From: a virus
IMG/VR virus record: IMGVR_UViG_3300009553_000027
Span: 1 to 56,552 of that record
Length of the DNA stretch: 56,552 bases
Direction: 5' to 3' (one strand)
In this document: positions 19,195 through 54,414 of the stretch, one piece after another
How positions within the stretch are numbered: position 1 is the stretch's first letter
Layout: each line of letters starts with the position of its first letter
The notes under the pieces: generated by a model
Seen by the model: the letters and a program-made list of their open reading frames with translations, nothing else
Databases searched by the model: none
What the model was told of the DNA's origin: nothing
Made by a program: the position numbers and the translations under genes

Positions 19195-22100
19195 ATGGAG
19201 AAGGGGTTCGCTGTCCGGTTGTCGGCTTCGGTCGACCAGTACGTCGCGGCGATGGCGAAGGCGCGTGGCGCGACCGAAGCTGTCGGCGCGTCGAGCGTCA
19301 AGAACTTCGAGAAGCTCGGCACGTCGATGTCGCAGATTGGCGGCAAGCTGACCCGTTCCGTGACGTTGCCCGTGATCGCCGCTGGCGCGGGGATGGTCGC
19401 GGCGTCGCTCTCGTGGGAGTCGAGTTTCGCCGGCGTCGCGAAGACCGTCGACATGTCCGCGGCCGGGCTGCAGCGTCTCGAAGGTCAGCTGCGAGCGATG
19501 GCACGTTCGATGCCAGCAACACACGGGGAGATCGCGGCGGTCGCTGAGGCTGCCGGCCAACTCGGCGTGCAGGCCGACAACATCGCCGACTTCACGAAGG
19601 TGATGGTCGAGCTCGGTGCCACGACGAACCTGTCGTCCGAGGAAGCCGCAACCTCGATCGCTCAGATGGCGAACATCATGGGGACCGCGCCGCGGGACAT
19701 CGAGCGGCTCGGTGCCGCACTCGTCGATCTCGGCAACAACGGCGCGTCGACAGAGCGGGACATCATTCAGATGGCCCAGCGGATCGCCGGTGCGGGCGAC
19801 GTGATCGGCCTGTCCGAGGCGGACGTGCTCGGCTTCGCCAATGCGCTCGCGTCGGCGGGCATCGAAGCTGACGCCGGTGGTACCGCGATCTCGACGACGA
19901 TGATCTCGATCGCCAAGGCCGTCCAGACCGGCGGTGAGTCGCTCGACTCGTTCGCGTCAGTCGCCGGGATGTCGTCGACAGCGTTCGCGGCCGCGTTCCG
20001 TGAGGACGCCGCCGGTGCGATCACTCAGTTCATCGCCGGGCTCGGCGGGATCTCCGAGGCGGGCGGGAACGTCTTCGGGGTGATGGACCAGCTCGGCCTG
20101 TCCGACGCCCGTGTCTCACGCGCACTGCTCTCGATGGCCGGCGCGGGCGACCTGCTGCGCAATTCGCTCGATCTCGGAACGCAAGCCTGGAACGACAACA
20201 CCGCGCTGCAGGAGGAGTACGCGAAGCGTGCCGACACGAGCGCGTCGAAGCTCGCTGTGCTGCGCAACCAGATCGTCGACGTCGCGATCGACCTCGGCAA
20301 CCAGATGGTTCCGGTCCTCCTCGATGTCGTCGGTGGCGTCGCTTCGCTGGTCAAGTGGTTCGGAAATCTCCCTGCGCCCGTGAAGGACGTCGCGCTCGGC
20401 CTGCTCGCGGTGACCGCGGCGGCGGGCCCGCTGCTGATGGTCGGCGGCTCGCTGGTCAGGAACTTCATGCTGATCCAGTCGACGTTCAAGAAGCTGACGG
20501 ACACGATGAGCATGAACCCGTGGCTGATCGCTGCGGGCGCGGCTGTCGCCGCGATCGGGATCCTGACCGCCGCCGGCGGTGACCAGTCGCAGGTTCAGCA
20601 GGAGATGGAGATGCGGGCGCAGGACGTCGCGACCGCGCTCGACACCGAGATCGATCAGATCGTCCGGCTCGGTGTCGAGTCCGGCCAGGCCGTCGACCCC
20701 GTCAAGTTCCTCGCAGACGCGCAGGGTGCCCTGTCGAAGGCGCTGATCGCCGGCGATGACGTCGACGATCTCACCAAGGCCCTCGGCGCGCTCGGCTTCA
20801 CCACACAGGACACCGCCGAGGTGTTCCGGATGCTCAACGGCATGAAGCTGTCGCCATCTGGCGGAGTGGTCGAAGGCTGGTATGCCCTGACGAGGGCGAC
20901 GCTCGAGGCGAAGGGCATCTCGGAGGACGTCGCGCACGTCCTCGCCGACACAGCGTCCGAAGTCCTGACCACGGGCGGAGTGTGGGACATCACGTCCGAA
21001 GCGACCCGGGGCTGGACGACCGAGCAGCTCGCCCTGTTCGACGCGATGAAGCTGATCGCCGGCCAGGTCGACAAGACCGACATGAACAAGGTCGCCGCCG
21101 ACTACCTCAACGCCCAGGTCGCTGCCGGCGGGCTGACAGCGGAGCTCGTCACTCAGGCCGAGGCCCTGACAGGCGTGTCGCGCAACGGCGACACCTCGAC
21201 CGCCGTCTACGAGAAGTACCTTGAGCTGCTCTCCCAACTCACACCGGAGCAGCAGGCCCTCGCCGCGGGGGTCAAGGAGACCACGACTGCCGTCGAGCAG
21301 AACACTCCGGCGCTCGTCGACCAGGAGGAGCAGCTGAAGCGGCAGAAGGCCGCGCTGGACGCCGTGAAGAAGGCGCTCGCCGACAGCCGGAACGAGTTCC
21401 AGCGCCTCGCCGACGAAGCCGGTGTGCTCGAGCAGGCGCTGTCCGACGTGTTCGGCGGTCCGGCGGACCTCGAGCAGGCCCAACGCAACTACCAGGCCGG
21501 GCTGCACGATCTACGCGACGCGTTCAAGGAGAACGGCCGCACCCTCGACATGTCGACGGAGAAGGGCCGCGCGAACCGCGAGGAGATCGAGAAGCAGCTC
21601 GACGCGATCGCCGACTGGGGCGTCGCGATGGTGAAGAACGGCACCTCGACCGAGGACGCTGCGAACGCGGTGAACTTCCTCACCGAGGACCTCGTCAAGC
21701 AGATGGTTCAGGCCGGCTTCACCGAAGACGCGGCACGCGCCTACATCGAGCAGCTCGGCCGCACCCCGGAGGACGTGACGACCGCGCTGCAGCTGGTCGG
21801 CGACGAGAAGATGAAGGCCGACCTGCAGGATCGCCTCGATCAGCTCGACTCGATCGACGAGGGCGCGGCGGCGAAGATCGAGGCCTTGATCGACGCGGGG
21901 TCGTTCGACGAGGCGCGCCGCATGTTGGACGATCTCACGGGCACGCGCGATGTGAACGTCACGGTGCACAGCAGCGGCCGCCACTTCGTGTCGGCAGCCG
22001 GTCGATTCGTGCCGGCGGGGTCGAACATGCTGACGACCGTCGGCGAACGCGGTCCGGAGGTGATCCTCCCGCTCGACGATCCCGCACGGATGCGCGCGCT

Positions 22101-23358
22101 GATGTCCGATCCTCGCGTCAGCGGGCCGATGGCTCGACTGTTCGGCGCCGGCGAACCTGGCCCCGGGCAGGGAGCCAAGACGGGCGCCGCGAGCTCCGTC
22201 GGCGCGGCGAACGATTGGAACGCGTACGAGCAGTCGCATCTGCTCGACCAGTACGTGGTCCAGCCCCCCGCGCCGTCGACCACCGAGGCGACCTCCGAAG
22301 ACGACGTCATGGAGAACCGCTACAAGCGCCACGATCTGTCGGCCGCGGACTACGACGCCTACCTCGCGCACAAGCAGGAAGGGCTCGTGAAGTACTCCGA
22401 CGAGGAAGAGGCCGTCTTCGAAAGGCGGCAGCAGCTCGCCGAGGACGAGAAGCGCGCGAACGACGACCGGATCGAAGAAGAGCGCGAGGTGATGCGCTTC
22501 AAGCTCGACTCCGGCGAGATCACGCTGCGCGAGTACCGCGAATATCTGAAGGGGCAGCTCGAATCGACCGACGCCTACTCGGCGGATCACCGCAAGATCT
22601 GGGGCGAGCTGCACGATGTCGAGCTGGACATCGCCGAAGAACAGCAGGCCAAGATCGACGCGATGCGTGACGCCGCGGAGAAGGCTGAGAAGGCGCGGCT
22701 CGACCGCATCGAAGACGCGTACGAGAAGGCGGGGGAGCGGCGGTCGGCGGCGGATGCGTCGCGTGCTGCTGATGAGGCGATGTCGGATCTGTCGGCCGCG
22801 GCTGCGACGGCGGAGTGGTATGCGCATGATCGGAAAGCGACCGATCAGGAACGTGCCGATGCGAACGCCGACCTGGAACGCGCGAAGGAGCGTGCTGCGC
22901 AGGCGTTGTATGAGCGGGCAGACGCGAACGCGAACAACGCTGGGATCGAGGACAAGACGCCGGAGTGGTCGGCTGCGGTTCGTGCTGCACTGCTCGCCGA
23001 CGAGCAGAATGCCCCGGCGCTGGCGCCGTACATCGATCGCATCCTCGACGGCATCCCGACCTTCGCGGCCGGCGGCTACGTGCCGGCGACGGTTGGCGGC
23101 CAGGTCATCCGGGTTGCCGAGGCCGGGCGCGGCGAGTGGGTCATGGACGATCCGAAGCTGCAAGGGCTCCTCACCGCAGCTGCATCGCAGGCGTACCATC
23201 CGGCCGGCCCTGGCGCGATGGCGGCACCTTCGGTCGCGATCGGCGACACGGTGGTGCGGGTCTTCATCGGGAACGAGGAGATCTCCCGGATCGCCCGGAT
23301 CGAGATCGACCGTGCCGACCGGGAAAGCGACGCCCGACTGTTGGCGGGCGTCAGGTGA
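19195..23358 (+). CDS. Tape measure protein (1387 aa)
   Basis: This is the largest gene. GGAGG precedes the ATG. The N-terminus (SVDQYVAAMAKARGATEAVG, LTRSVTLPVIAAGAGMVAAS) and AEAAGQLGVQADNIADFTKV match the phage tail tape measure core domain. A hydrophobic stretch near residues 400-470 may be the membrane-crossing segment. Long coiled coils follow (about residues 700-830 and 1050-1230). Two segments with a GRFVPAG...VGERGPEVILPL and GGYVPA...VAEAGRGEWVM pattern occur near residues 940 and 1290, usual in actinophage tape measures. The length predicts a tail near 0.2 micrometre. Confidence 0.9.
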   Translation: MEKGFAVRLSASVDQYVAAMAKARGATEAVGASSVKNFEKLGTSMSQIGGKLTRSVTLPVIAAGAGMVAASLSWESSFAGVAKTVDMSAAGLQRLEGQLRAMARSMPATHGEIAAVAEAAGQLGVQADNIADFTKVMVELGATTNLSSEEAATSIAQMANIMGTAPRDIERLGAALVDLGNNGASTERDIIQMAQRIAGAGDVIGLSEADVLGFANALASAGIEADAGGTAISTTMISIAKAVQTGGESLDSFASVAGMSSTAFAAAFREDAAGAITQFIAGLGGISEAGGNVFGVMDQLGLSDARVSRALLSMAGAGDLLRNSLDLGTQAWNDNTALQEEYAKRADTSASKLAVLRNQIVDVAIDLGNQMVPVLLDVVGGVASLVKWFGNLPAPVKDVALGLLAVTAAAGPLLMVGGSLVRNFMLIQSTFKKLTDTMSMNPWLIAAGAAVAAIGILTAAGGDQSQVQQEMEMRAQDVATALDTEIDQIVRLGVESGQAVDPVKFLADAQGALSKALIAGDDVDDLTKALGALGFTTQDTAEVFRMLNGMKLSPSGGVVEGWYALTRATLEAKGISEDVAHVLADTASEVLTTGGVWDITSEATRGWTTEQLALFDAMKLIAGQVDKTDMNKVAADYLNAQVAAGGLTAELVTQAEALTGVSRNGDTSTAVYEKYLELLSQLTPEQQALAAGVKETTTAVEQNTPALVDQEEQLKRQKAALDAVKKALADSRNEFQRLADEAGVLEQALSDVFGGPADLEQAQRNYQAGLHDLRDAFKENGRTLDMSTEKGRANREEIEKQLDAIADWGVAMVKNGTSTEDAANAVNFLTEDLVKQMVQAGFTEDAARAYIEQLGRTPEDVTTALQLVGDEKMKADLQDRLDQLDSIDEGAAAKIEALIDAGSFDEARRMLDDLTGTRDVNVTVHSSGRHFVSAAGRFVPAGSNMLTTVGERGPEVILPLDDPARMRALMSDPRVSGPMARLFGAGEPGPGQGAKTGAASSVGAANDWNAYEQSHLLDQYVVQPPAPSTTEATSEDDVMENRYKRHDLSAADYDAYLAHKQEGLVKYSDEEEAVFERRQQLAEDEKRANDDRIEEEREVMRFKLDSGEITLREYREYLKGQLESTDAYSADHRKIWGELHDVELDIAEEQQAKIDAMRDAAEKAEKARLDRIEDAYEKAGERRSAADASRAADEAMSDLSAAAATAEWYAHDRKATDQERADANADLERAKERAAQALYERADANANNAGIEDKTPEWSAAVRAALLADEQNAPALAPYIDRILDGIPTFAAGGYVPATVGGQVIRVAEAGRGEWVMDDPKLQGLLTAAASQAYHPAGPGAMAAPSVAIGDTVVRVFIGNEEISRIARIEIDRADRESDARLLAGVR

Positions 23359-37322: not shown

Positions 37323-38336
37323 ATGGCCATCCCCCTCATCGACAACATCCGCACCGAGCTCATCGGCATCGAAGCCATCATCGACGCTGTCACCGTCGAC
37401 CGCGACACGGCGATCGCACGCGCCGACACCGCGACAGCGACCGTCGCCCGGCTCGGCGAAGAGAACGCCGCGCTGCTCGTCTCGAACCAGGCGCTCCTCG
37501 CCCGCCTCGCCGCGCTCCAGCCGGCGCCGGTGAAGGTCGACACGTGGATCGGCGCGACCATCAACGCGAAGGCCGGCCAGACCGCCGCTGCCGCGCTCAC
37601 CGCGTGGGAACAGACGAAGGGCCGATGCGGTGTCCTGCGCACCTTCAACAGCGTGCTCCCGACCAGCTTCTCGTCAGCGAGCGGCGCTTCCCAGATGCAC
37701 GGCCGCCACCGCATCATCTCCGTCAAAGGCGCAGCGACCGCCGCCTACTGGGACCGGTTCATCACCTCGATCCCCGTCGAGCACGACACCGCCGGCAACC
37801 CGATCGTCACCGTGCTCGTCATCTGGCACGAACCCGAGAACGACGGCGGCACCATGACGCCCACCGTCTACCGCGCCGCCTGCCACCTCCTCGAGCAGCG
37901 CGTCCGCGCCTCGGGCCGCGACGACGTGGTCGCCGGCGCCGTCCTCATGTCGTGGCTCGAACGCGACGCCGAGACGTTGAACACCTCGAGCGCCGACTGG
38001 TTCCCGACCGAGCACGTCGGCAACTTCGTGCTGCTCCTCGATCCGTACGACCCGAACAGCAACCGCACCCTGCGCGCCCAGACCGAGCCGACGCTCGCGC
38101 TATGGCGGCAGGCCGGCGGCGTCTGGTGGGGGATCGCCGAGACCGCGTCACATCGCACCGGCGACGACCTCGCGCGCTGGATTACCGACGGGCTCGACTG
38201 GGCACACGTCGAAGGTGCGTCGTTCGTCTGCTGGTTCCACTCCGCCGTCGGCACCGCAGCCGGGCCGACAGGCTGGTGGCTCGACGACCCGAAGGGCGCC
38301 GCCGCCTGGAAGGCCAAAGCACCCGTCATGAGGTAG
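37323..38336 (+). CDS. Coiled-coil protein with glycoside-hydrolase-like (clan A) domain (337 aa)
   Basis: Residues about 20-66 form a coiled coil, likely a trimer stalk. Residues 75-337 resemble a (beta/alpha)8 glycosidase: STLP-like first strand region, then VLVIWHEPEND with a candidate acid/base Glu170, DWFPTEHVGNFVLLLDPYD, and GGVWWGIAETASHRTGDD with a candidate nucleophile Glu273. The HEPE and AET positions match the order seen in the GH26-type spike at 26468, though sequence similarity is low. The protein probably attacks a host glycan. It is the last clear tail gene before the terminator. Confidence 0.65.
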   Translation: MAIPLIDNIRTELIGIEAIIDAVTVDRDTAIARADTATATVARLGEENAALLVSNQALLARLAALQPAPVKVDTWIGATINAKAGQTAAAALTAWEQTKGRCGVLRTFNSVLPTSFSSASGASQMHGRHRIISVKGAATAAYWDRFITSIPVEHDTAGNPIVTVLVIWHEPENDGGTMTPTVYRAACHLLEQRVRASGRDDVVAGAVLMSWLERDAETLNTSSADWFPTEHVGNFVLLLDPYDPNSNRTLRAQTEPTLALWRQAGGVWWGIAETASHRTGDDLARWITDGLDWAHVEGASFVCWFHSAVGTAAGPTGWWLDDPKGAAAWKAKAPVMR

Positions 38337-38352
38337 GGAGTACCATCGCCGC

Positions 38353-38691
38353 ATGGGCCGCAACGAGGTCGAGTGGCGGTACTTCTACAACGTGCAGCAC
38401 CGTCTGTTCTGGGCTCCCGGTGCCAAGCTCGAAGACTGGGTGCAGGACCGCCAAGAGGAACGAGGGCACCTGGCCGACGGTGGCGGTCCGCTCTGGCTGC
38501 GCGCTGCCGACAGGTTCGCGACGTGGCTCCTTCGCCGCGGTGGCGTCCGCTACCAGGGCACAGCTCGCCAGATGCGTCGGACATGGGTGAAGGCCGGCGA
38601 GTTCTGGCGGCTTGAGCCAGACGATCCGCTCTACGAGCCTCGCGGTCCGTGGGACGACAAACGCCTGACTGCCGACGCATCTCACAGCTGA
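38353..38691 (+). CDS. Hypothetical protein at the end of the late region (112 aa)
   Basis: The ATG at 38353 lies 16 bases after the hydrolase stop. The sequence is rich in Trp, Arg and Tyr (NEVEWRYFYNVQHRLFW, FATWLLRRGGVRYQGTARQM), with no membrane segment or Cys. No family recognised. It is the last gene before a strong terminator. Confidence 0.65.
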   Translation: MGRNEVEWRYFYNVQHRLFWAPGAKLEDWVQDRQEERGHLADGGGPLWLRAADRFATWLLRRGGVRYQGTARQMRRTWVKAGEFWRLEPDDPLYEPRGPWDDKRLTADASHS

Positions 38692-38704
38692 CCCTTGCCA
38701 CCGA

Positions 38705-38740
38705 GAAGGCCCGCCACTCCGACTGGGGTGGCGGGCCTTC
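38705..38740. terminator. Strong terminator at the end of the late region
   Basis: A perfect 13-bp stem, GAAGGCCCGCCAC with GTGGCGGGCCTTC, closes a 10-base loop and is followed by TTCGCGTTCC. It lies between the last rightward late gene and the 3' end of the leftward HicB-like gene, so it can stop transcripts from both sides. Confidence 0.85.
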
Positions 38741-38754
38741 TTCGCGTTCCCGAT

Positions 38755-39495
38755 CTACTCGTGCGAGCTGGCGCCGATCGGGCCGAGGCCCTCGAGCACG
38801 AGGTCGCCGTCATCACCGAGCGACGCCTTCGCGATCACTCCCGGCTGATCGTCGAGCAGCCCGCGGACCTCCGGCCCGTAGGTCGCGATCGTGCGCGCGA
38901 TCGCGCGCATCGCGGCAGCATCCGGATGGCCGGTGAACGTCCAATGCGTCTTCGTCCCTGTCACCGTGCCGCGGACGTTCACCAGGCAGCCACGGCCACG
39001 TTCGTCGCGGACCTCGATCTGCGCCAACCGCCCGCCGGGGCGGCCACCGCGGCGCGGTGTCTCGGCGAACCCGCGCACCGCGCTCTCGATGTACACCGGA
39101 CCGGAAGCGAGCTCGGCGACCGGCCGCGGGAACGTCGGGGTGCGGGTGAGCGCGTGAGCGCGCTGGCGCGACACGCCGAGGATCTCGGCCGTCTCGGTGA
39201 TCCCAACCAACGGCGGCACACGCGGCTCCTCGAGGCGCTCATCGGCGATCTCCTCGGTCAGCACCTCGATCCCGACGATCGACCACCCAGCGGGGATACC
39301 GGCGGCGGTCAGCACGGTGAGCGCCTTCTGCTGTGCGGCGGCGATGATGGCGGCCTCGACGGTGTAGTCGATGGTGATCCGCCCAGGGCCGGAACGTGCC
39401 GGCGCGCCGAGGGCCTCGACGAGCCGGCCGACGAGCTCGTCGTCGTCGACCGGGCCGTCGAGGGTGGCGGTGACCGCCCACCGGGGGCGGGTCAC
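38755..39495 (-). CDS. HicB-like antitoxin candidate with central HTH (246 aa)
   Basis: It starts with GTG in a GTGA overlap with the toxin-like gene upstream on the same strand. The N-terminal domain (RPRWAVTATLDGPVDDDELV, RITIDYTVEAAIIAAAQQKA) is an alpha/beta fold, and the middle has a clear helix-turn-helix, GITETAEILGVSRQRAHALT. The C-terminal part (GTVTGTKTHWTFTGHPDAAA, PEVRGLLDDQP) is a second compact domain, so the protein is longer than usual HicB antitoxins. Pairing with a HicA-like partner, the DNA-binding domain and the shared operator suggest it neutralises the toxin and represses the pair. Confidence 0.55.
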   Translation of the reverse strand: MTRPRWAVTATLDGPVDDDELVGRLVEALGAPARSGPGRITIDYTVEAAIIAAAQQKALTVLTAAGIPAGWSIVGIEVLTEEIADERLEEPRVPPLVGITETAEILGVSRQRAHALTRTPTFPRPVAELASGPVYIESAVRGFAETPRRGGRPGGRLAQIEVRDERGRGCLVNVRGTVTGTKTHWTFTGHPDAAAMRAIARTIATYGPEVRGLLDDQPGVIAKASLGDDGDLVLEGLGPIGASSHE

Positions 39496-39713
39496 AGGTC
39501 CGCCCCTGAGTGACGCAGGTCGCGCCTCGTGTTCTCCGGTGCCCGGTGATCGGACGGCGTCTTCGCGATCGTCACGATCTCCATGGTCTTGTCGGGCGGG
39601 TATGCCTTCACGTGCTTGCCTCCGTCGACGATCCGCCAGCCTTGCTGTTCGCACCTGGCGAGCATCTCGTTGATCTTGTCGTTGTTGGTCCACTTCTTGA
39701 TCCGTGCCATCAT
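39492..39713 (-). CDS. HicA-like toxin candidate (73 aa)
   Basis: The small basic protein has the HicA-type dsRBD pattern: GWRIVDGGKHVKAYPPDKTM with the key GxH, then VTIAKTPSDHRAPENTRRDL and a final RHSGADL. HicA toxins bind and cut mRNA; the His in GKH corresponds to the catalytic one. The start is one of two adjacent ATGs (39713 or 39710), downstream of a good promoter. Toxin first and antitoxin second is the usual hicAB order. Confidence 0.65.
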   Translation of the reverse strand: MMARIKKWTNNDKINEMLARCEQQGWRIVDGGKHVKAYPPDKTMEIVTIAKTPSDHRAPENTRRDLRHSGADL

Positions 39714-39727
39714 CCTGCCCTGTTCCC

Positions 39728-39770
39728 TTGACGTTGTCAACAGTATGGCAGAAACTAGAGACGGTGTCAA
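39728..39770 (-). promoter_or_regulatory. Promoter and palindromic operator of the HicA/HicB-like pair
   Basis: Reading leftward there is a TTGACA (-35, 39770-39765), a 17-base spacer and CATACT (-10, 39747-39742). Just downstream lies the palindrome TTGAC-AAC-GTCAA (39740-39728). The -35 contains another TTGAC half-site. The layout fits autorepression by the HTH partner. Confidence 0.7.
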
Positions 39771-39876
39771 TGGTTTAGTGATGGGACGCAGGTGCTGTAT
39801 GCCAGCCGATATCGACGGCTACGAGACGGGTCGGCTCTGAACGAGACGACGGGTGCCAGCGCGCGACGCTGACCAG

Positions 39877-40044
39877 ATGAGCCTCGACCGCGAACGACTC
39901 CGCCACGCGCGCCTCGCCGGCGCCGTACAAGCGATCGAAGATCTCACGATGCTCGACCCCGAGCGCGCCCGCGACCTCGAGACCGTCTGGCCTGAGCTCT
40001 TCGCGAAGCTTCAGGCCGCGTTCCGGATCAACCGCGGCGACTGA
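39877..40044 (+). CDS. Small hypothetical protein (55 aa)
   Basis: The ATG at 39877 gives MSLDRERLRHARLAGAVQAI followed by an acidic helix and FAKLQAAFRINRGD; a GTG at 39853 would add eight residues. It is fully helical. No family recognised; it is transcribed away from the toxin-antitoxin promoter. Confidence 0.55.
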   Translation: MSLDRERLRHARLAGAVQAIEDLTMLDPERARDLETVWPELFAKLQAAFRINRGD

Positions 40045-40119
40045 CGCGCGGCGCCGAACTGTGACAGCTGACGCGTTCGCGCCTGTCTTTCGGCTCGGTC
40101 ATGGGGGCATGATCGTGGC

Positions 40120-40398
40120 ATGACGGCAACGCGGCCGGACGGTCGGCATTCAATGCGACGCACGGCAATGGTGACGAAAGAGGTACCGTTCACACCTGTG
40201 AGCACCTATCAGGTCGTGGAACGCCGAGGCGCGGACGAGCACGAGAGGGCGCAGAGTCACGCCGAGCATCTCGTGCGCGACGGCGCGCTTGAGGAAGTTG
40301 ACGAGGTCTACGACGCGGTCGAACGCGGCGAAGACCCGTTTGACGACGCCGCCGACTGCAGCGACGTGCTCGCCCGCGCCCAGCAAATCCACCCCTAA
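40120..40398 (+). CDS. Acidic hypothetical protein, possible antitoxin (92 aa)
   Basis: The C-terminal half is very acidic (LVRDGALEEVDEVYDAVERG, EDPFDDAADCSDV), as in antitoxins that wrap around a partner. An internal Met at 40168 (MVTKEVPFTPVS) is an alternative start. It lies 12 bases upstream of the next gene, whose C-terminus looks RelE/ParE-like. No family recognised. Confidence 0.5.
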   Translation: MTATRPDGRHSMRRTAMVTKEVPFTPVSTYQVVERRGADEHERAQSHAEHLVRDGALEEVDEVYDAVERGEDPFDDAADCSDVLARAQQIHP

Positions 40399-40410
40399 TA
40401 TGGGCGCCGC

Positions 40411-40716
40411 GTGGCGCGGCAGATCAGCAACGGGCGGGTGTTGTACGACTGGCTCGCGCGCACCCACGACCCGATCCGGCGCGAGACCCTCCTGACGTGG
40501 ACACGAGCTGCGTGCATCGACCCGGACGCCGTCACCCACGGCACGGTCCAGAAGCCGCCGCCATCACGGCGCGCTCTCCGCTACGCAAGCGTGCCCGGAG
40601 CGGCAGCGACCGTGTTCTTCCTCGTGTTCGACACCCCCGTCAAGGTTCTGCACCTGGTCCGCATCTACGACGACCCGGGGCTCGACGAGCCCACGCTCTG
40701 GGTGGAGGAGGAGTGA
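40411..40716 (+). CDS. Possible RelE/ParE-like toxin (101 aa)
   Basis: It has a GTG start. The C-terminal part, SRRALRYASVPGAAATVFFL followed by VFDTPVKVLHLVRIYDDPG, has the strand pattern and the position of the final R-rich strand seen in RelE/ParE proteins. The N-terminal helix region (VLYDWLARTHDPIRRETLLT) is less typical. It is a candidate only; it could also be an unrelated small alpha/beta protein. Confidence 0.4.
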   Translation: MARQISNGRVLYDWLARTHDPIRRETLLTWTRAACIDPDAVTHGTVQKPPPSRRALRYASVPGAAATVFFLVFDTPVKVLHLVRIYDDPGLDEPTLWVEEE

Positions 40717-40738: not shown

Positions 40739-40762
40739 CGGCCCTATTCATGAATAGGGCCG
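40739..40762. terminator. Perfect 24-bp palindrome between convergent genes
   Basis: The arms CGGCCCTATTCA and TGAATAGGGCCG are exact complements. The element covers the last codons and the TAG stop of the leftward membrane protein and follows the rightward gene ending at 40716. A bidirectional terminator with a short loop is the simplest reading, although no T-run follows; a protein-binding site is the alternative. Confidence 0.5.
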
Positions 40763-41022
40763 CGGAGTGCGTCGATGGCCACTCCAGCGACAAAGGCGAT
40801 GACGCCCGCGAGGAAGATCGGACCGCCAAGCGCTGCACCGACGAGCAGCCGGGCGGGGAGGTCGTACCGGTCCTTGTCGAGCGCCACCAGGACCATGAAG
40901 AGCGTGAGCGCCACACCGGCGACCATCACCAGCGCACCGCGGCTCTGCAGACGTTCGGCCGGACCAGGATCTCTCATCGCCGCGAGCCGAGCGGCGCGCG
41001 CCTCGAACGACCAGCGGCTCAT
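40744..41022 (-). CDS. Small two-span membrane protein (92 aa)
   Basis: The start at 41022 (MSRWSFEARAARLAAMRDPG) was chosen over 41052 because a perfect palindrome lies between them. Two hydrophobic segments are visible, ALVMVAGVALTLFMVLVA and LLVGAALGGPIFLAGVIAFV, separated by a short charged loop. It lies alone on the minus strand next to attP. A role in superinfection exclusion or lysogenic conversion is possible but unproven. Confidence 0.6.
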   Translation of the reverse strand: MSRWSFEARAARLAAMRDPGPAERLQSRGALVMVAGVALTLFMVLVALDKDRYDLPARLLVGAALGGPIFLAGVIAFVAGVAIDALRGPIHE

Positions 41023-41026
41023 CGCG

Positions 41027-41040
41027 CCCTCACGTGAGGG
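41027..41040. promoter_or_regulatory. Palindromic operator candidate CCCTCACGTGAGGG
   Basis: This exact 14-bp palindrome lies 5 bases upstream of the chosen start of the leftward membrane protein. That position suits a repressor site or an RNA stem controlling translation. Confidence 0.4.
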
Positions 41041-41180
41041 ACCATACAGCATCGGTCAAGCGCTTTTCCGCGCCCATGTCGCTCCCATCTCTGTGGGTCA
41101 TCGGCTACCTAGCCGGCGGTTCGGCCTGCTGTCACCGTCTGTGACCACGGATGTTTGGGACGGTGGGAGAATCGCACTGT

Positions 41181-41215
41181 TGAGGCCAGGGGTTCAATTC
41201 CCCTCACCTCCACCC
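41181..41215 (+). other. attP core candidate identical in form to the 3' end of a tmRNA (ssrA) gene
   Basis: The segment forms a T-arm, AGGGG-TTCAATT-CCCCT (41188-41204), followed by an acceptor-like CACCTCC, a discriminator A and CC. No 5' partner (GGAGGTG) or remaining tRNA body is nearby, so it is not a full RNA gene. The TTCAATT loop and CTCCACC end are typical of tmRNA; a tRNA cannot be excluded. It lies 106 bases before the integrase gene, as expected for attP. Integration would rebuild the host gene's 3' end. Confidence 0.7.
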
Positions 41216-41320: not shown

Positions 41321-42436
41321 ATGGCACGACGCGACTATGGAGCCGGCAGCATCATCCAGCGCGGCGACGCCTGGTATCTGCGCTGGTACTCCACTGACCC
41401 GCTCACCGGCCGCCGGATCCGTCGCTCCGAGACGTTCCGCGGCGCGAAGCGCGACGCATCGAAGCGGCTCGCGCAGCTCACCGCGCGCACCAGCGACGTC
41501 GACGGCACACTCGTCACCCTCGAGCAGTGCATCGACCGCTGGCGCGAAACCGTCGAGCACGAGAAGAGCACCGGCCGGAACTACGACCGCGGCAAGGCAT
41601 CGATCCCCGCGCACGTCCTAGCGATGCCGATCGCCTCGATCCGGGCATCGCACCTCGCCGAGCTCATCGACGCGATCGAAGCCGCCAGCGGCGTCCACCG
41701 CGCCCGCCTCGTGCACGCCACGATCTCCGGCGCGCTCACGCAAGCGTGGCGGTGGGAGTGGATCGCGCAGAACCCGGCACGCCGGGTCGTGCCGCCCGCC
41801 GCGCCCGGCCGCGCACCGACCCAGCCGTCGCGCGCACAGGTCCAACAGCTCCTCGCGCTGGTTGCCAATCAGCCGCAGCTGTACGCGTGGATCATGACCT
41901 CCGCCGACGTCGGCGGCCGGCCCGGCGAGGTGCTCGCGCTGCGATGGTCGAAGGTCGATCTCGAGCGGGCGCAGATCTTCGTGTCACAGGCGATCGATCC
42001 GATCGATGGCGCCGAGAAGGCGACGAAGACGAAGGGCAAGCGGACCGTCGCGGTCTCGCCGGCGACGATCGACGCGCTGACCGTCTGGCGCAAGCTGCTC
42101 GTTGAGCGCGCGGAGAGCGCAGGCGTCGAGCTCGTCGCCGATCCGTTCGTGTTCAGCGACGACCTCGCCGGCGTTCGGCCGTGGCGAACTGATCTCGCGA
42201 CGAAGCGGTTCGGCCGGCTGAAGGCGAAGGTGCCCGGCCTCGAGCGAGTGCGGCTCTACGACCTGCGCCACTTCGTCGCGACCGAGCTGATCGCGGCCGG
42301 CGTGCCGGCGAAGACCGTCTCGTCGCGGCTCGGGCACACCCGGCTCGCCACGACGACCGACACGTACAGCCATGTCACCGAAGCCCAGGACCGCGACGCC
42401 GCCGTCGTCATGGGCGACCGGTTACGCGCCGATTGA
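41321..42436 (+). CDS. int: Tyrosine integrase (371 aa)
   Basis: The ATG at 41321 gives MARRDYGAGSIIQRGDAWYL, the arm-binding domain typical of actinophage integrases. A core-binding domain spans about residues 60-150. The catalytic domain carries Arg200 (GGRPGEVLALRW), Arg316 with the next His (YDLRHFVAT), His339 (LGHTRLATT) and the nucleophile Tyr349 (DTYSHV). The usual His of the HxxR box is Tyr here, a known tolerated change. The upstream in-frame region crosses attP and its terminator and is not coding. It catalyses site-specific integration and excision. Confidence 0.9.
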   Translation: MARRDYGAGSIIQRGDAWYLRWYSTDPLTGRRIRRSETFRGAKRDASKRLAQLTARTSDVDGTLVTLEQCIDRWRETVEHEKSTGRNYDRGKASIPAHVLAMPIASIRASHLAELIDAIEAASGVHRARLVHATISGALTQAWRWEWIAQNPARRVVPPAAPGRAPTQPSRAQVQQLLALVANQPQLYAWIMTSADVGGRPGEVLALRWSKVDLERAQIFVSQAIDPIDGAEKATKTKGKRTVAVSPATIDALTVWRKLLVERAESAGVELVADPFVFSDDLAGVRPWRTDLATKRFGRLKAKVPGLERVRLYDLRHFVATELIAAGVPAKTVSSRLGHTRLATTTDTYSHVTEAQDRDAAVVMGDRLRAD

Positions 42437-43709: not shown

Positions 43710-43782
43710 AACGCCGCCGGGTGTCGTCAAGTAGCGTTGACAGTGGGCGGCCGAACGCGTGTTCGATCCAGGAGGTTCACGA

Positions 43783-44526
43783 GTGGCGCAGACGGCTATC
43801 GAATGGACAGAGGCGACGTGGAATCCGACAACCGGATGTGATCGCACCAGCCCGGGGTGCGATCACTGCTATGCACTGACGCTGGCGAAGCGCCTGAAGG
43901 CGATGGGCCAACCGAAGTACCAGAACGACGGCGACCCTGTCTCGAGCGGACCTGGCTTCCGACTCACGATTCACGAGGACGCATTGAACGTTCCGCGCAC
44001 GTGGACGGCGGCGCGCAAGGTGTTCGTGAACTCGATGAGCGACCTCTTCCATCCGGACGTCCCCGAAGACTTCATCCGCCGCGTCTTCGACGTAATGGTG
44101 GACACTCCTCGTCACGAGTACCAGGTATTGACGAAGCGCTCGAAACGCCTCGCGCAGATGGCCCATCGACTGCCGTGGCCGCCCAACGTGTGGATGGGCG
44201 TATCCATCGAGAACCAGACGTATGCGTTCCGCGCCAACCACCTGCGCGACGTGCCGGCCGCAGTGCGTTTCGTCTCCGCCGAGCCACTCATCGGGCCGGT
44301 CGAGCTCGACCTCGACGGAATCGACTGGCTGATCGCCGGTGGCGAGTCCGGAGTAGGAGCGCGGCCGCTGGACATCGAATGGGTGCGCGCCCTTCGCGAC
44401 GCGTGTCTCGAGCAGCGGGTGGCATTCTTCTTCAAGCAATGGGGCGGCCGGCATCCGAAGGCTGGCGGGCGAGATCTCGATGGAAGAACGTGGGGCGAGT
44501 ATCCGCAGCCCCGCGTCGCCGCCTAG
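43783..44526 (+). CDS. DUF5131 (phage Gp37/Gp68-like) three-Cys-motif protein (247 aa)
   Basis: GGAGG seven to eight bases upstream decides the GTG at 43783. The N-terminus IEWTEATWNPTTGCDRTSPG followed by CDHCYA contains Cys19, Cys26 and Cys29 (CX6CX2C), the hallmark of the family and reminiscent of radical-SAM iron-sulfur sites. Further family segments are KVFVNSMSDLFHPDVP, YQVLTKRSKRLAQMA, WMGVSIENQ and FVSAEPLIGPVELDLDGIDW, ending with FFFKQWGG. Its biochemical function is not established. It is normally found with TcmP, as here, but in a convergent arrangement. Confidence 0.85.
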   Translation: MAQTAIEWTEATWNPTTGCDRTSPGCDHCYALTLAKRLKAMGQPKYQNDGDPVSSGPGFRLTIHEDALNVPRTWTAARKVFVNSMSDLFHPDVPEDFIRRVFDVMVDTPRHEYQVLTKRSKRLAQMAHRLPWPPNVWMGVSIENQTYAFRANHLRDVPAAVRFVSAEPLIGPVELDLDGIDWLIAGGESGVGARPLDIEWVRALRDACLEQRVAFFFKQWGGRHPKAGGRDLDGRTWGEYPQPRVAA

Positions 44527-52290: not shown

Positions 52291-52463
52291 AGGCGCCGGA
52301 CGACCGCGCCGGCACGCAACCGCGGCCATGGCGTTGCACGATGGCCAGCGCGCTGTTCTGCCCGCTGCACGGTGCGTGCACCTGCGGTCGGGACAGCAAC
52401 GGTTGCCCGCTCCACGCGCCCACCTCCGGCCATCCGTCGAACGAGGCGGTTCTCGTCCCGTGA
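52287..52463 (+). CDS. Cys-rich small zinc-binding protein (58 aa)
   Basis: It starts as ATGA. CPLHGACTCGRDSNGCPLHA holds four Cys and two His, a compact zinc knuckle known from many actinophage early genes (CPxHGxCxC...CPLHxPxS). Function unknown; the short N-terminus is basic. Confidence 0.7.
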   Translation: MKAPDDRAGTQPRPWRCTMASALFCPLHGACTCGRDSNGCPLHAPTSGHPSNEAVLVP

Positions 52464-52630
52464 ACGACCCACTGCTCTCGTTCCTGCGCCGCGCGTTCGG
52501 TACCGGGCCCTCGCTGTCGCACCGCGAGCAGTCCGCTCCGAACTGGCGGGGGGACGGACACGACGACCACCGGATCACTGCCGCCGCCGCGAACCTCCGC
52601 AACGAACACCAACGGCGAGGCCGACGATGA
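52460..52630 (+). CDS. Small hypothetical protein (56 aa)
   Basis: GTG start in a GTGA overlap; it ends in an ATGA overlap with the methyltransferase. NDPLLSFLRRAFGTGPSLSH, then HRITAAAANLRNEHQRRGRR is basic and partly helical. The double coupling is the main support. Confidence 0.55.
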   Translation: MNDPLLSFLRRAFGTGPSLSHREQSAPNWRGDGHDDHRITAAAANLRNEHQRRGRR

Positions 52631-54262
52631 CGGCGACGGTCACAGACCTGTTCTGCGGCGCCGGCGGGAGCTCGCTCGGCGCCGAGCTCGCGGGCGCGCA
52701 GCTCGTGATGGCCGCGAACCACTGGCAGACCGCGATCGATGTCCACCAGGCCCACTTCCCGGACGCCGGCCACGACTGCGCCGACATCTCGCAGGCCGAC
52801 CCGCGCCGCTACCCACGCACGGACATCCTGCTCGCCTCCCCGGAGTGCACGAACCACAGCCAGGCGCGCGGCGTCAGCCGCAAGCGTCAGGACCCGTCCC
52901 TGTTCGACTCGGCCGATCTGTCCGCCGAGCGGTCGCGGGCCACGATGTGGGACGTCGTCCGGTTCGCCGAGCAGATGCACTACGCGGCCGTGGTCGTCGA
53001 GAACGTCGTCGAGGCGACGAAGTGGGTGCTGTGGCCCGCGTGGTACCAGGCGATGCAGTCGCTCGGCTACCGGGCCACGATCCTGTCGCACAACTCGATG
53101 CACCACGGCGTGCCACAGTCGCGCGACCGGATCTACGTCGTCTGGGTCCGCGACGGCCTGCGGCCGAACCTGGAGTTGGAGCACACGGCGTGGTGCTCAC
53201 GCTGCGACCGCGCCCGCCCGGTGCGGCAGGCGTGGAAGCAGGGCCGCCGCGTCGGCCGCTACCGCCAGCAGTGGACGTGGTCGTGCACCACGTGCGGTGC
53301 CACCTGCGAGCCAGCGACCGAGGCAGCAGCCACGATCATCGACTGGGCGCTCGACTGCCCCCGCATCGGTGACCGCGCGCGACCGCTCGCCCCCGCGACG
53401 CGCGCCAGAATCCTCGCCGGCCTCGAGCGGTACGGCTGGACAGCGATCACGACATCGGGCGCCGGGAACGTGCACGAACGCACCCCCGGCAACCGGGCGC
53501 GCTCGGTCGACGAGCCACTCGCCACCCAGCAGACGACCGCGACCAGCGCCCTGGCCACCCCGCCTGGATTCCTCGTCGGCACGAACCGCACGACGCACGG
53601 GCATCGCCTCCATCCCCTCGACGCACCGCACCCCGTCGTCTGCGCGTCCGATGATCGGCTCTCGCTCGTCGTGGCCATGCGCGGGACCGATCGCAGCCAC
53701 GTCGAGTCGGCCGCCCAGCCGGTCGACCGTCCGCTTCGCACCGTTTTCGGCGAACGGTCTCCACGCCGGCCTTGTGGTCCGGAACTACGGCAACCGTGGT
53801 GGCAACCCTGGTCGACACGTCACACCGGCCTCGGAGCCGGTGCGGACCGTCACCACCCAGCCCGGGATGGCGCTGCTGATGCGCAACAACACGGACTCCG
53901 GACGTGGAGAGATGTGCACGCCTGTCGAGCAACCGGCGCGGTCGATGACCACGAAGGGCCACCAGTCGCTGCTCGTGCCCTACAACCGCACAGCGAGCGC
54001 CCAGCCCGTCGAGCAGCCGACACCCACCATGACGACGCACGACCGCGCCGGCCTCGTCGACCCCGCAACGATCGTCGACGACTGCGGGTTCAGGATGTTG
54101 GAGCCGTACGAGGTCGCCGCGGCGATGGCGTTCCCGCCCGGCTACATCCCGCGCGCTCTCCCGAAGAAGGACCAGGTGAAGCTCGCCGGCAACGCCGTGA
54201 CGCCGCCGGTGATGACGTGGATCGTCGGCCGGCTCCTGCAAGCCCTCGAGGTCGCGGCATGA
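52627..54262 (+). pseudogene. C5-cytosine DNA methyltransferase interrupted by a frameshift
   Basis: The N-terminal 370 residues carry the standard motifs: VTDLFCGAGGSSLG (SAM binding), LLASPECTNHSQARG (catalytic Cys region), VVVENVVEATKW (ENV) and GVPQSRDRIYVVW. At about 53745 the frame turns into shadow sequence, while the +1 frame continues with ANGLHAGLVVRNYGNRGGNP, target-recognition-like repeats (PVRTVTTQPG, RSMTTKG) and the final AFPPGYIPRALPKKDQVKLA followed by GNAVTPPVM. Removing one T from the TTTT at 53744-53747 joins them. As written, the first frame instead runs into the next gene. Either it is inactivated or the base is an error. Confidence 0.8.
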
Positions 54263-54414
54263 ACGCCGGCCCGGTGATCGTCCTGATCGTCATCGTCTGC
54301 CTTGGCCCGATCCTGGCGGTCGGGATCTTCCCGGGCCTGCACGAATACCTGCGCCGTCACGATCCGAGCTGCGACGACACCGCCACGACGGAGGCCGGAG
54401 ATGCTGGCGCGTGA
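54259..54414 (+). CDS. Small single-span membrane protein (51 aa)
   Basis: The ATG at 54259 overlaps the true methyltransferase stop (ATGA). AGPVIVLIVIVCLGPILAVG is one membrane span, followed by FPGLHEYLRRHDPS and an acidic tail. The same frame is open upstream only because of the methyltransferase frameshift, so the upstream part should not be added. Confidence 0.6.
   Translation: MNAGPVIVLIVIVCLGPILAVGIFPGLHEYLRRHDPSCDDTATTEAGDAGA

What the first reader, a model, noticed from the sequence alone, without database searches (positions are those of the whole stretch)
38755..39770. HicA-like toxin with an enlarged HTH partner and its own promoter
A 73-residue HicA-like protein overlaps a 246-residue partner that has an alpha/beta N-domain, a central HTH and an extra C-terminal domain, larger than known HicB. 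TTGACA-17-CATACT and a TTGAC-AAC-GTCAA palindrome lie upstream. The module is inverted relative to the late genes and insulated by a strong terminator, as expected for a gene expressed in the lysogen, for prophage stability or defence.
Basis: partly seen in the sequence, partly recalled or inferred. Interest (0 to 1): 0.6.

Follow-up and report, generated by a model that had tools for sequence, protein, structure and literature searches.

The report
HicA-like toxin with non-HicB antitoxin
Next to the integration site of a temperate phage lies a two-gene module that looks like a self-regulated toxin-antitoxin pair: a small protein with the fold of the RNA-cutting toxin HicA and a larger DNA-binding partner that is not the usual antitoxin HicB; the same pair occurs in many actinobacteria, plasmids and phages, so it is a variant of a known kind and not a one-off.

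Summary
On the minus strand a 72/73-codon gene (39492-39713) overlaps a 246-codon gene (38755-39495) at GTGA, behind a TTGACA-17-CATACT promoter and a TTGACAACGTCAA palindrome. The small protein is HicA-like: helix-strand-strand-strand-helix model, HicA complexes at Foldseek ranks 1 and 3, profile match to true HicAs, PADLOC 'HicA-like'. The partner is not HicB: no profile match, and its N-domain is modelled as a ferredoxin-like sandwich followed by an AlpA/MerR-type HTH and a variable C-domain. Its closest relative is PADLOC's defence candidate PDC-M06B. The pair recurs in order in plasmids, phages, prophages and genomes: in 296 actinobacterial genomes the six strongest partner hits all sit directly behind a small HicA-like gene. 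Some HicA-like genes are followed by the N-domain alone, which points to it as the antitoxin part. A second copy of the palindrome covers the -35; twin sites 26-37 bp apart lie in 10 of 19 related promoters against 2% of background. The module sits 1.5 kb from a tmRNA-type attP, at the attR end of the prophage. Most likely: an autoregulated type II toxin-antitoxin module expressed in the lysogen. Toxicity, neutralisation and defence are untested. New variant of a known kind.

The parts
39492..39713 (-). HicA-like small protein gene (73 codons from the first ATG at 39713, 72 from 39710), putative toxin
   Evidence: fold model pLDDT 86 helix-strand-strand-strand-helix; Foldseek PDB rank 1 5yrz_B and rank 3 6hpb_A, both HicA complexes; profile match to true HicAs, probability 93.5%; PADLOC HicA-like 2e-13
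38755..39495 (-). partner gene, 246 codons, GTG start overlapping the toxin stop by 4 nt; putative antitoxin and autorepressor
   Evidence: homologous to PADLOC PDC-M06B over residues 3-147, probability 97%
39232..39495 (-). N-terminal alpha/beta domain of the partner (residues 1-88, strand-helix-strand-strand-helix-strand, ferredoxin-like); putative toxin-binding part
   Evidence: model; ferredoxin-like S6 permutants among best PDB folds; found alone behind HicA-like genes in Gordonia phage Birdsong and L040
39139..39204 (-). helix-turn-helix of the partner (residues 98-119, HTH_17 / AlpA / MerR type)
   Evidence: weak Pfam hit; helices 99-106 and 110-117 in the model; PHROG excisionase/regulator hit; AlpA and CarH among weak PDB hits
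38758..39048 (-). C-terminal extension of the partner (residues 150-246), low-confidence beta-rich fold, no relatives found
   Evidence: pLDDT mostly below 60; no match in plasmids; relatives have other or no C-terminal extensions
39742..39770 (-). promoter TTGACA (39770-39765) - 17 - CATACT (39747-39742)
   Evidence: 10 of 12 matches, 0.1 expected
39728..39740 (-). operator 2: palindrome TTGACAACGTCAA just downstream of the -10
39758..39770 (-). operator 1: imperfect copy TTGACACCGTCTC over the -35, 30 bp from operator 2
38703..38742 (.). stable GC-rich hairpin between the convergent late genes and the module; likely bidirectional terminator without a clean T-run
   Evidence: z -4.6 and -5.6; not listed as a terminator
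41189..41214 (+). attP core: 26 nt identical to a tmRNA-type 3' end
   Evidence: Rfam tmRNA fragment 41141-41215, E 1e-7, below the gathering score as expected for a fragment; the 26 nt occur exactly in two actinobacterial genomes
41321..42436 (+). tyrosine integrase, on the other side of attP
   Evidence: PHROG integrase 1.4e-56

Best explanation
The module is an autoregulated two-gene toxin-antitoxin system of a temperate phage. The small protein has the HicA (dsRBD-like) fold and probably acts on RNA, most likely as an RNase that stops translation. The partner holds it inactive through its N-terminal ferredoxin-like domain and uses its HTH to bind two palindromic sites that flank the promoter, so that free antitoxin or the complex shuts off transcription. 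Sitting at the attR end of the prophage, behind its own promoter and facing the late genes, it is probably expressed in the lysogen, where it would either kill cells that lose the prophage or block incoming phages. Shown here: gene order and overlap, the fold class of the small protein (by model), homology of the partner to PDC-M06B, conservation of the pair, conservation of the twin sites, closeness to attP. Inferred: toxicity, RNase activity, neutralisation by the N-domain, repression, lysogenic expression and biological role.
For: Fold and profile link to HicA. Five of 17 family members hit Pfam HicA_toxin, best 3.4e-6. Pair conserved in order: 13 plasmid or phage records, viral contigs L022 and L023, Streptomyces loci L027-L032, and in 296 genomes the six strongest partner hits (E <= 2e-35) all directly behind a small-gene hit. 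A M. abscessus prophage pair of this type is annotated toxin/antitoxin, and the authors place such pairs among early lytic genes but often on the opposite strand, with other prophage TA pairs strongly transcribed in lysogens (PMC8092301). N-domain-only partners next to HicA-like genes. Twin operators in 10 of 19 pair loci against 2.2% of random stretches and in none of 6 loci without the HTH partner. attP next door.
Against: No toxicity or binding data for this subfamily. The histidine that HicA needs is replaced by W, F, Y or L in about half of the family; in the window protein (GGKH, H33) it is one residue off in the ungapped profile alignment. HicA-like genes of the same family also occur without this partner, and a phage HicA-like orphan of another subfamily was not toxic when overexpressed (PMC13148394). 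The partner model is only moderately confident and the two-protein complex could not be modelled.
Confidence: 0.7

Rival explanations
1. The pair is a regulatory unit, not a toxin-antitoxin system: the HTH protein is a prophage regulator or excisionase-like DNA-binding protein and the small protein is a nucleic-acid-binding cofactor without RNase activity.
For: The partner hits PHROG excisionase/transcriptional regulator and DNA-binding families. The HicA catalytic histidine is not conserved, while another set (T51, R56, N60, L65, G69) is. Solitary small genes are tolerated in phages.
Against: The pair is found on many plasmids and chromosomes that lack this phage, always toxin first. N-domain-only partners have no DNA-binding part. 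Link to HicA by profile, fold and PADLOC. The operators lie on its own promoter, as expected for autoregulation.
Confidence: 0.2
2. It is a true hicAB locus whose HicB has diverged beyond recognition (Gerdes class 3, HicB with a C-terminal HTH).
For: Same layout as class 3: toxin first, partner with N-domain then HTH, palindromic operator (PMC10865869).
Against: hhalign finds no relation of the partner profile to HicB (probability 0.1%). The N-domain model is strand-helix-strand-strand-helix-strand, unlike the published HicB fold; the partner does match PDC-M06B at 97%.
Confidence: 0.07
3. Within the toxin-antitoxin reading, the module serves as anti-phage defence of the lysogen and not as an addiction module.
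For: Sister of the PADLOC phage-defence candidate PDC-M06. HicA domains are proposed to act in defence (PMC10865869). Prophage TA pairs are implicated in defence (PMC8092301).
Against: PDC-M06 is a candidate only; no paper naming it was found. The module is also common on plasmids, which fits addiction equally well.
Confidence: 0.4

Closest known systems
PADLOC candidate system PDC-M06 (PDC-M06A + PDC-M06B)
   Same: Small HicA-like gene followed by a partner with an alpha/beta N-domain and a HTH; partner homologous over residues 3-147 (97%, E 6e-11); same gene order.
   Different: Small proteins related only distantly (46%) and with another conserved core; the window partner has a different C-terminal extension; the window protein scores better with PADLOC's 'HicA-like' model than with PDC-M06A.
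prophiGD91-4 gp36/gp35 (Mycobacterium abscessus prophage, MW584206)
   Same: Toxin-first overlapping pair on the opposite strand to its neighbours, annotated toxin/antitoxin; partner 33% identical over N-domain and HTH.
   Different: Toxin only 19% identical and with a long C-terminal tail; no experiment on this pair found; lies in the early region, not beside attP.
hicAB class 3 (HicB with C-terminal HTH; PMC10865869)
   Same: HicA-fold toxin first, antitoxin with an N-terminal neutralising domain and a C-terminal HTH, autorepression at palindromes.
   Different: The partner N-domain is not HicB; the catalytic histidine is not conserved; not among the 14 listed contexts.
Adephagia gp91/gp90 (mycobacteriophage HicA-like/HicB-like pair; PMC11373665)
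   Same: Phage-encoded HicA-fold toxin; toxicity and neutralisation shown experimentally for that pair.
   Different: Another HicA subfamily with a small HicB and the reverse gene order.

Membership tests
HicA toxin (Pfam PF07927) | sequence match of the window protein to the Pfam family | tested here: not met
   no hit; 5 of 17 family members do hit it, best 3.4e-6
HicA toxin (Pfam PF07927) | relation to HicA by profile comparison | tested here: met
   probability 93.5%, E 2.3e-7 over 58 columns
HicA toxin (Pfam PF07927) | helix-strand-strand-strand-helix dsRBD-like fold | tested here: met
   model pLDDT 86; HicA complexes at Foldseek ranks 1 and 3, though E-values are weak (0.14 and 0.9)
HicA toxin (Pfam PF07927) | catalytic histidine after an upstream glycine | tested here: inconclusive
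   window protein has G30-G31-K32-H33, but ungapped profile alignment puts HicA's His at V34; replaced by W/F/Y/L in about half of the family
HicA toxin (Pfam PF07927) | toxicity and RNA cleavage | not testable with these tools
   needs expression and RNase assays
HicB antitoxin / hicAB class 3 | partner carries a HicB (partial RNase H) domain | tested here: not met
   hhalign probability 0.1%; N-domain modelled as a ferredoxin-like sandwich; no HicB Pfam hit
Type II toxin-antitoxin system | two overlapping or adjacent co-conserved genes | tested here: met
   4-nt overlap; six of six strongest partner hits in 296 genomes directly behind a small gene
Type II toxin-antitoxin system | DNA-binding partner and operator at its own promoter | tested here: met
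   HTH; twin palindromic sites conserved; binding itself not shown
Type II toxin-antitoxin system | toxicity of one protein relieved by direct binding of the other | not testable with these tools
   needs experiment; co-folding not available
PDC-M06 (PADLOC candidate) | partner matches PDC-M06B | tested here: met
   hmmscan 9.8e-7, HTH part; hhalign 97% over N-domain and HTH
PDC-M06 (PADLOC candidate) | small protein matches PDC-M06A | tested here: inconclusive
   E about 0.001, partial; hhalign 46%; only 1 of 17 members hits it
PDC-M06 (PADLOC candidate) | anti-phage activity | not tested
   candidate status only; no paper found that names it

The most novel reading that the evidence does not exclude
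HicA-fold toxins have a second, non-HicB line of antitoxins: a ferredoxin-like domain found alone or joined to a HTH, which neutralises a divergent HicA-like subfamily with a changed active site and controls it through twin operators. It would unite the window module, PDC-M06 and many 'hypothetical' or 'orphan HicA-like' genes of actinobacteria and their phages.
Probability: 0.5. Interest if true: 0.55.

Novelty: new variant of a known kind. Interest (0 to 1): 0.42.

Why it matters
HicA-like genes are widely annotated in actinobacteriophages, often with no antitoxin in sight. If the ferredoxin-like domain is the antitoxin, many of these become complete, testable modules, a PADLOC defence candidate gains a mechanism, and it shows a HicA-type toxin changing its antitoxin fold while keeping the operon logic. 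The divergent active site raises the question whether these proteins still cut RNA.

Tried and rejected
A first list of windows for the family search had a wrong frame and was rerun. The idea that the partner is an enlarged HicB was rejected. The idea that the experimentally toxic Adephagia gp91 is a member of this subfamily was rejected after reading its sequence. C-terminal domain: no relatives found. No DNA relative of the region in known phages. PDC-M06 is not named in the held papers.

Full report
What is in the sequence. The window is an IMG/VR virus record of 56,552 bases, with a tape-measure protein gene at 19195-23358 and a tyrosine integrase at 41321-42436. On the minus strand, 39492-39713 encodes a 72/73-residue protein and 38755-39495 a 246-residue protein; the second starts with the GTG of GTGA at the stop of the first. 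The only sigma-70-like promoter found in 38000-40600 is TTGACA-17-CATACT in front of the pair. TTGACAACGTCAA lies at 39728-39740 and is the only such palindrome in the window. An imperfect copy, TTGACACCGTC, covers the -35, 30 bp away. A very stable hairpin separates the module from the convergent late genes, though it lacks a T-run.

The small protein. Pfam, NCBIfam and the Pfam HicA model give nothing for it alone. PADLOC's 'HicA-like' model gives 2.2e-13 and matches 16 of 17 relatives. Five of the 17 hit Pfam HicA_toxin. The profile of the family matches true HicAs at 93.5% probability. The AlphaFold2 model (pLDDT 86) is helix-strand-strand-strand-helix, and HicA complexes are ranks 1 and 3 in the PDB fold search, with weak E-values. 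Weak hits of the same profile in genomes are classical HicAs with HicB genes behind them (L042, L043, L046, L048, L050), so the family grades into HicA. The most constant residues are T51, R56, N60, L65 and G69, not the HicA histidine, which is W, F, Y or L in about half of the family. The window protein has GGKH, one residue short of the HicA His column in an ungapped alignment, so catalysis is plausible but open.

The partner. It has an N-domain modelled as strand-helix-strand-strand-helix-strand, a HTH at 98-119 and a C-terminal extension of low confidence. The N-domain resembles ferredoxin-like proteins such as S6 permutants. It has no relation to HicB by profile (0.1%). It is homologous to PDC-M06B (97%, E 6e-11), the HTH half of a PADLOC candidate defence system whose loci also start with a small HicA-like gene. 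The C-terminal extension differs between relatives and is missing in several.

The pair elsewhere. The two genes lie side by side, small gene first, on plasmids of Micrococcus, Brevibacterium, Paenarthrobacter, Brachybacterium, Cutibacterium, Rhodococcus and Streptomyces, in a M. abscessus prophage where they are annotated toxin and antitoxin, in two further viral contigs and in Streptomyces genomes. In 296 actinobacterial genomes the six strongest partner matches all follow a small-gene match directly on the same strand. Exceptions: L019 is cut by transposase genes, L020 has no small gene that I could see, and L001 has the small gene followed by a separate 71-aa HTH-like protein. In Gordonia phage Birdsong a HicA-like gene is followed by the N-domain alone (profile E 1e-21; Birdsong gp50 was itself a row of that profile, so this E-value is not independent), and L040 (weak, 0.008), L039 and L045 look similar by eye. 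This suggests that the N-domain, not the HTH, neutralises the toxin. That step is inferred.

Operators. With the window's own palindrome as the query (TTGAC-3-GTCAA), two sites 26-37 bp apart occur upstream of the small gene in 10 of 19 other pair loci at a score reached by 2.2% of random stretches of the same loci, and in none of six HicA-like loci without the HTH partner (earlier version). Some Streptomyces loci are close relatives, so the independent cases are fewer, about seven; and because TTGACA is itself a -35, the first site is partly explained by the promoter. The second site, downstream of the -10, is not. The spacing limits were set after looking at the loci. L022, with only 44% and 31% identical proteins, has TTGACATCGT over the -35 and GTTTACAACGTAAAC at the second site in the same spacing. 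This is what an autorepressor that clamps its promoter would leave.

Position in the prophage. A 75-base tmRNA 3' fragment (Rfam RF00023, E 1e-7) lies between the module and the integrase; its 26-base core occurs exactly in two actinobacterial genomes. Integration there would put the module at the attR end, facing the late genes, a usual place for genes expressed in the lysogen. In M. abscessus prophages such pairs often lie on the opposite strand to their neighbours and some are strongly transcribed in lysogens (PMC8092301).

Assessment. A type II toxin-antitoxin module is the best reading (0.7). It works like class 3 hicAB (PMC10865869) but is not hicAB, because the HicB domain was tested and is absent. 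Among named systems PDC-M06 is nearest by the partner. What is new is the recognition that a HicA-like subfamily pairs with a non-HicB, ferredoxin-like antitoxin candidate with or without a HTH, plus the conserved twin operator. What is missing is any experiment on this subfamily.

Noticed in passing
window 41141-41215: tmRNA 3' fragment (Rfam E 1e-7) next to the integrase: the likely attP, so the phage probably integrates into the host ssrA gene.
   Followed up: partly
window 52372-54414: DNA methyltransferase gene (PHROG 116, E 5e-53) in the early region.
   Followed up: no
window 43759-44526: Strong match to PHROG 2045 of unknown function (E 1.5e-93).
   Followed up: no
window 40747-41052: Minus-strand ORF of about 100 residues with two hydrophobic stretches between the module and attP; possible lysogenic membrane protein (inference from sequence).
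   Followed up: no
L017 1447-1656: PLSDB lists a tet(59) resistance gene at 100% identity on what is plainly the 69-codon HicA-like gene of a Cutibacterium plasmid: almost certainly a spurious resistance call.
   Followed up: no
L002 3177-4486: prophiGD91-4 carries a second annotated toxin/antitoxin pair (gp33/gp34) convergent with the pair homologous to the window's.
   Followed up: no
L001 4929-5443: HicA-like gene closest to the window's (58% over 50 residues) is followed by a 71-residue HTH-like protein instead of the two-domain partner: a possible split arrangement.
   Followed up: no
L039, L040, L045: HicA-like proteins with a cysteine-containing insertion followed by small alpha/beta proteins without HTH, like Gordonia phage Birdsong gp51/gp50: a candidate DNA-binding-free class of the same system.
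   Followed up: partly
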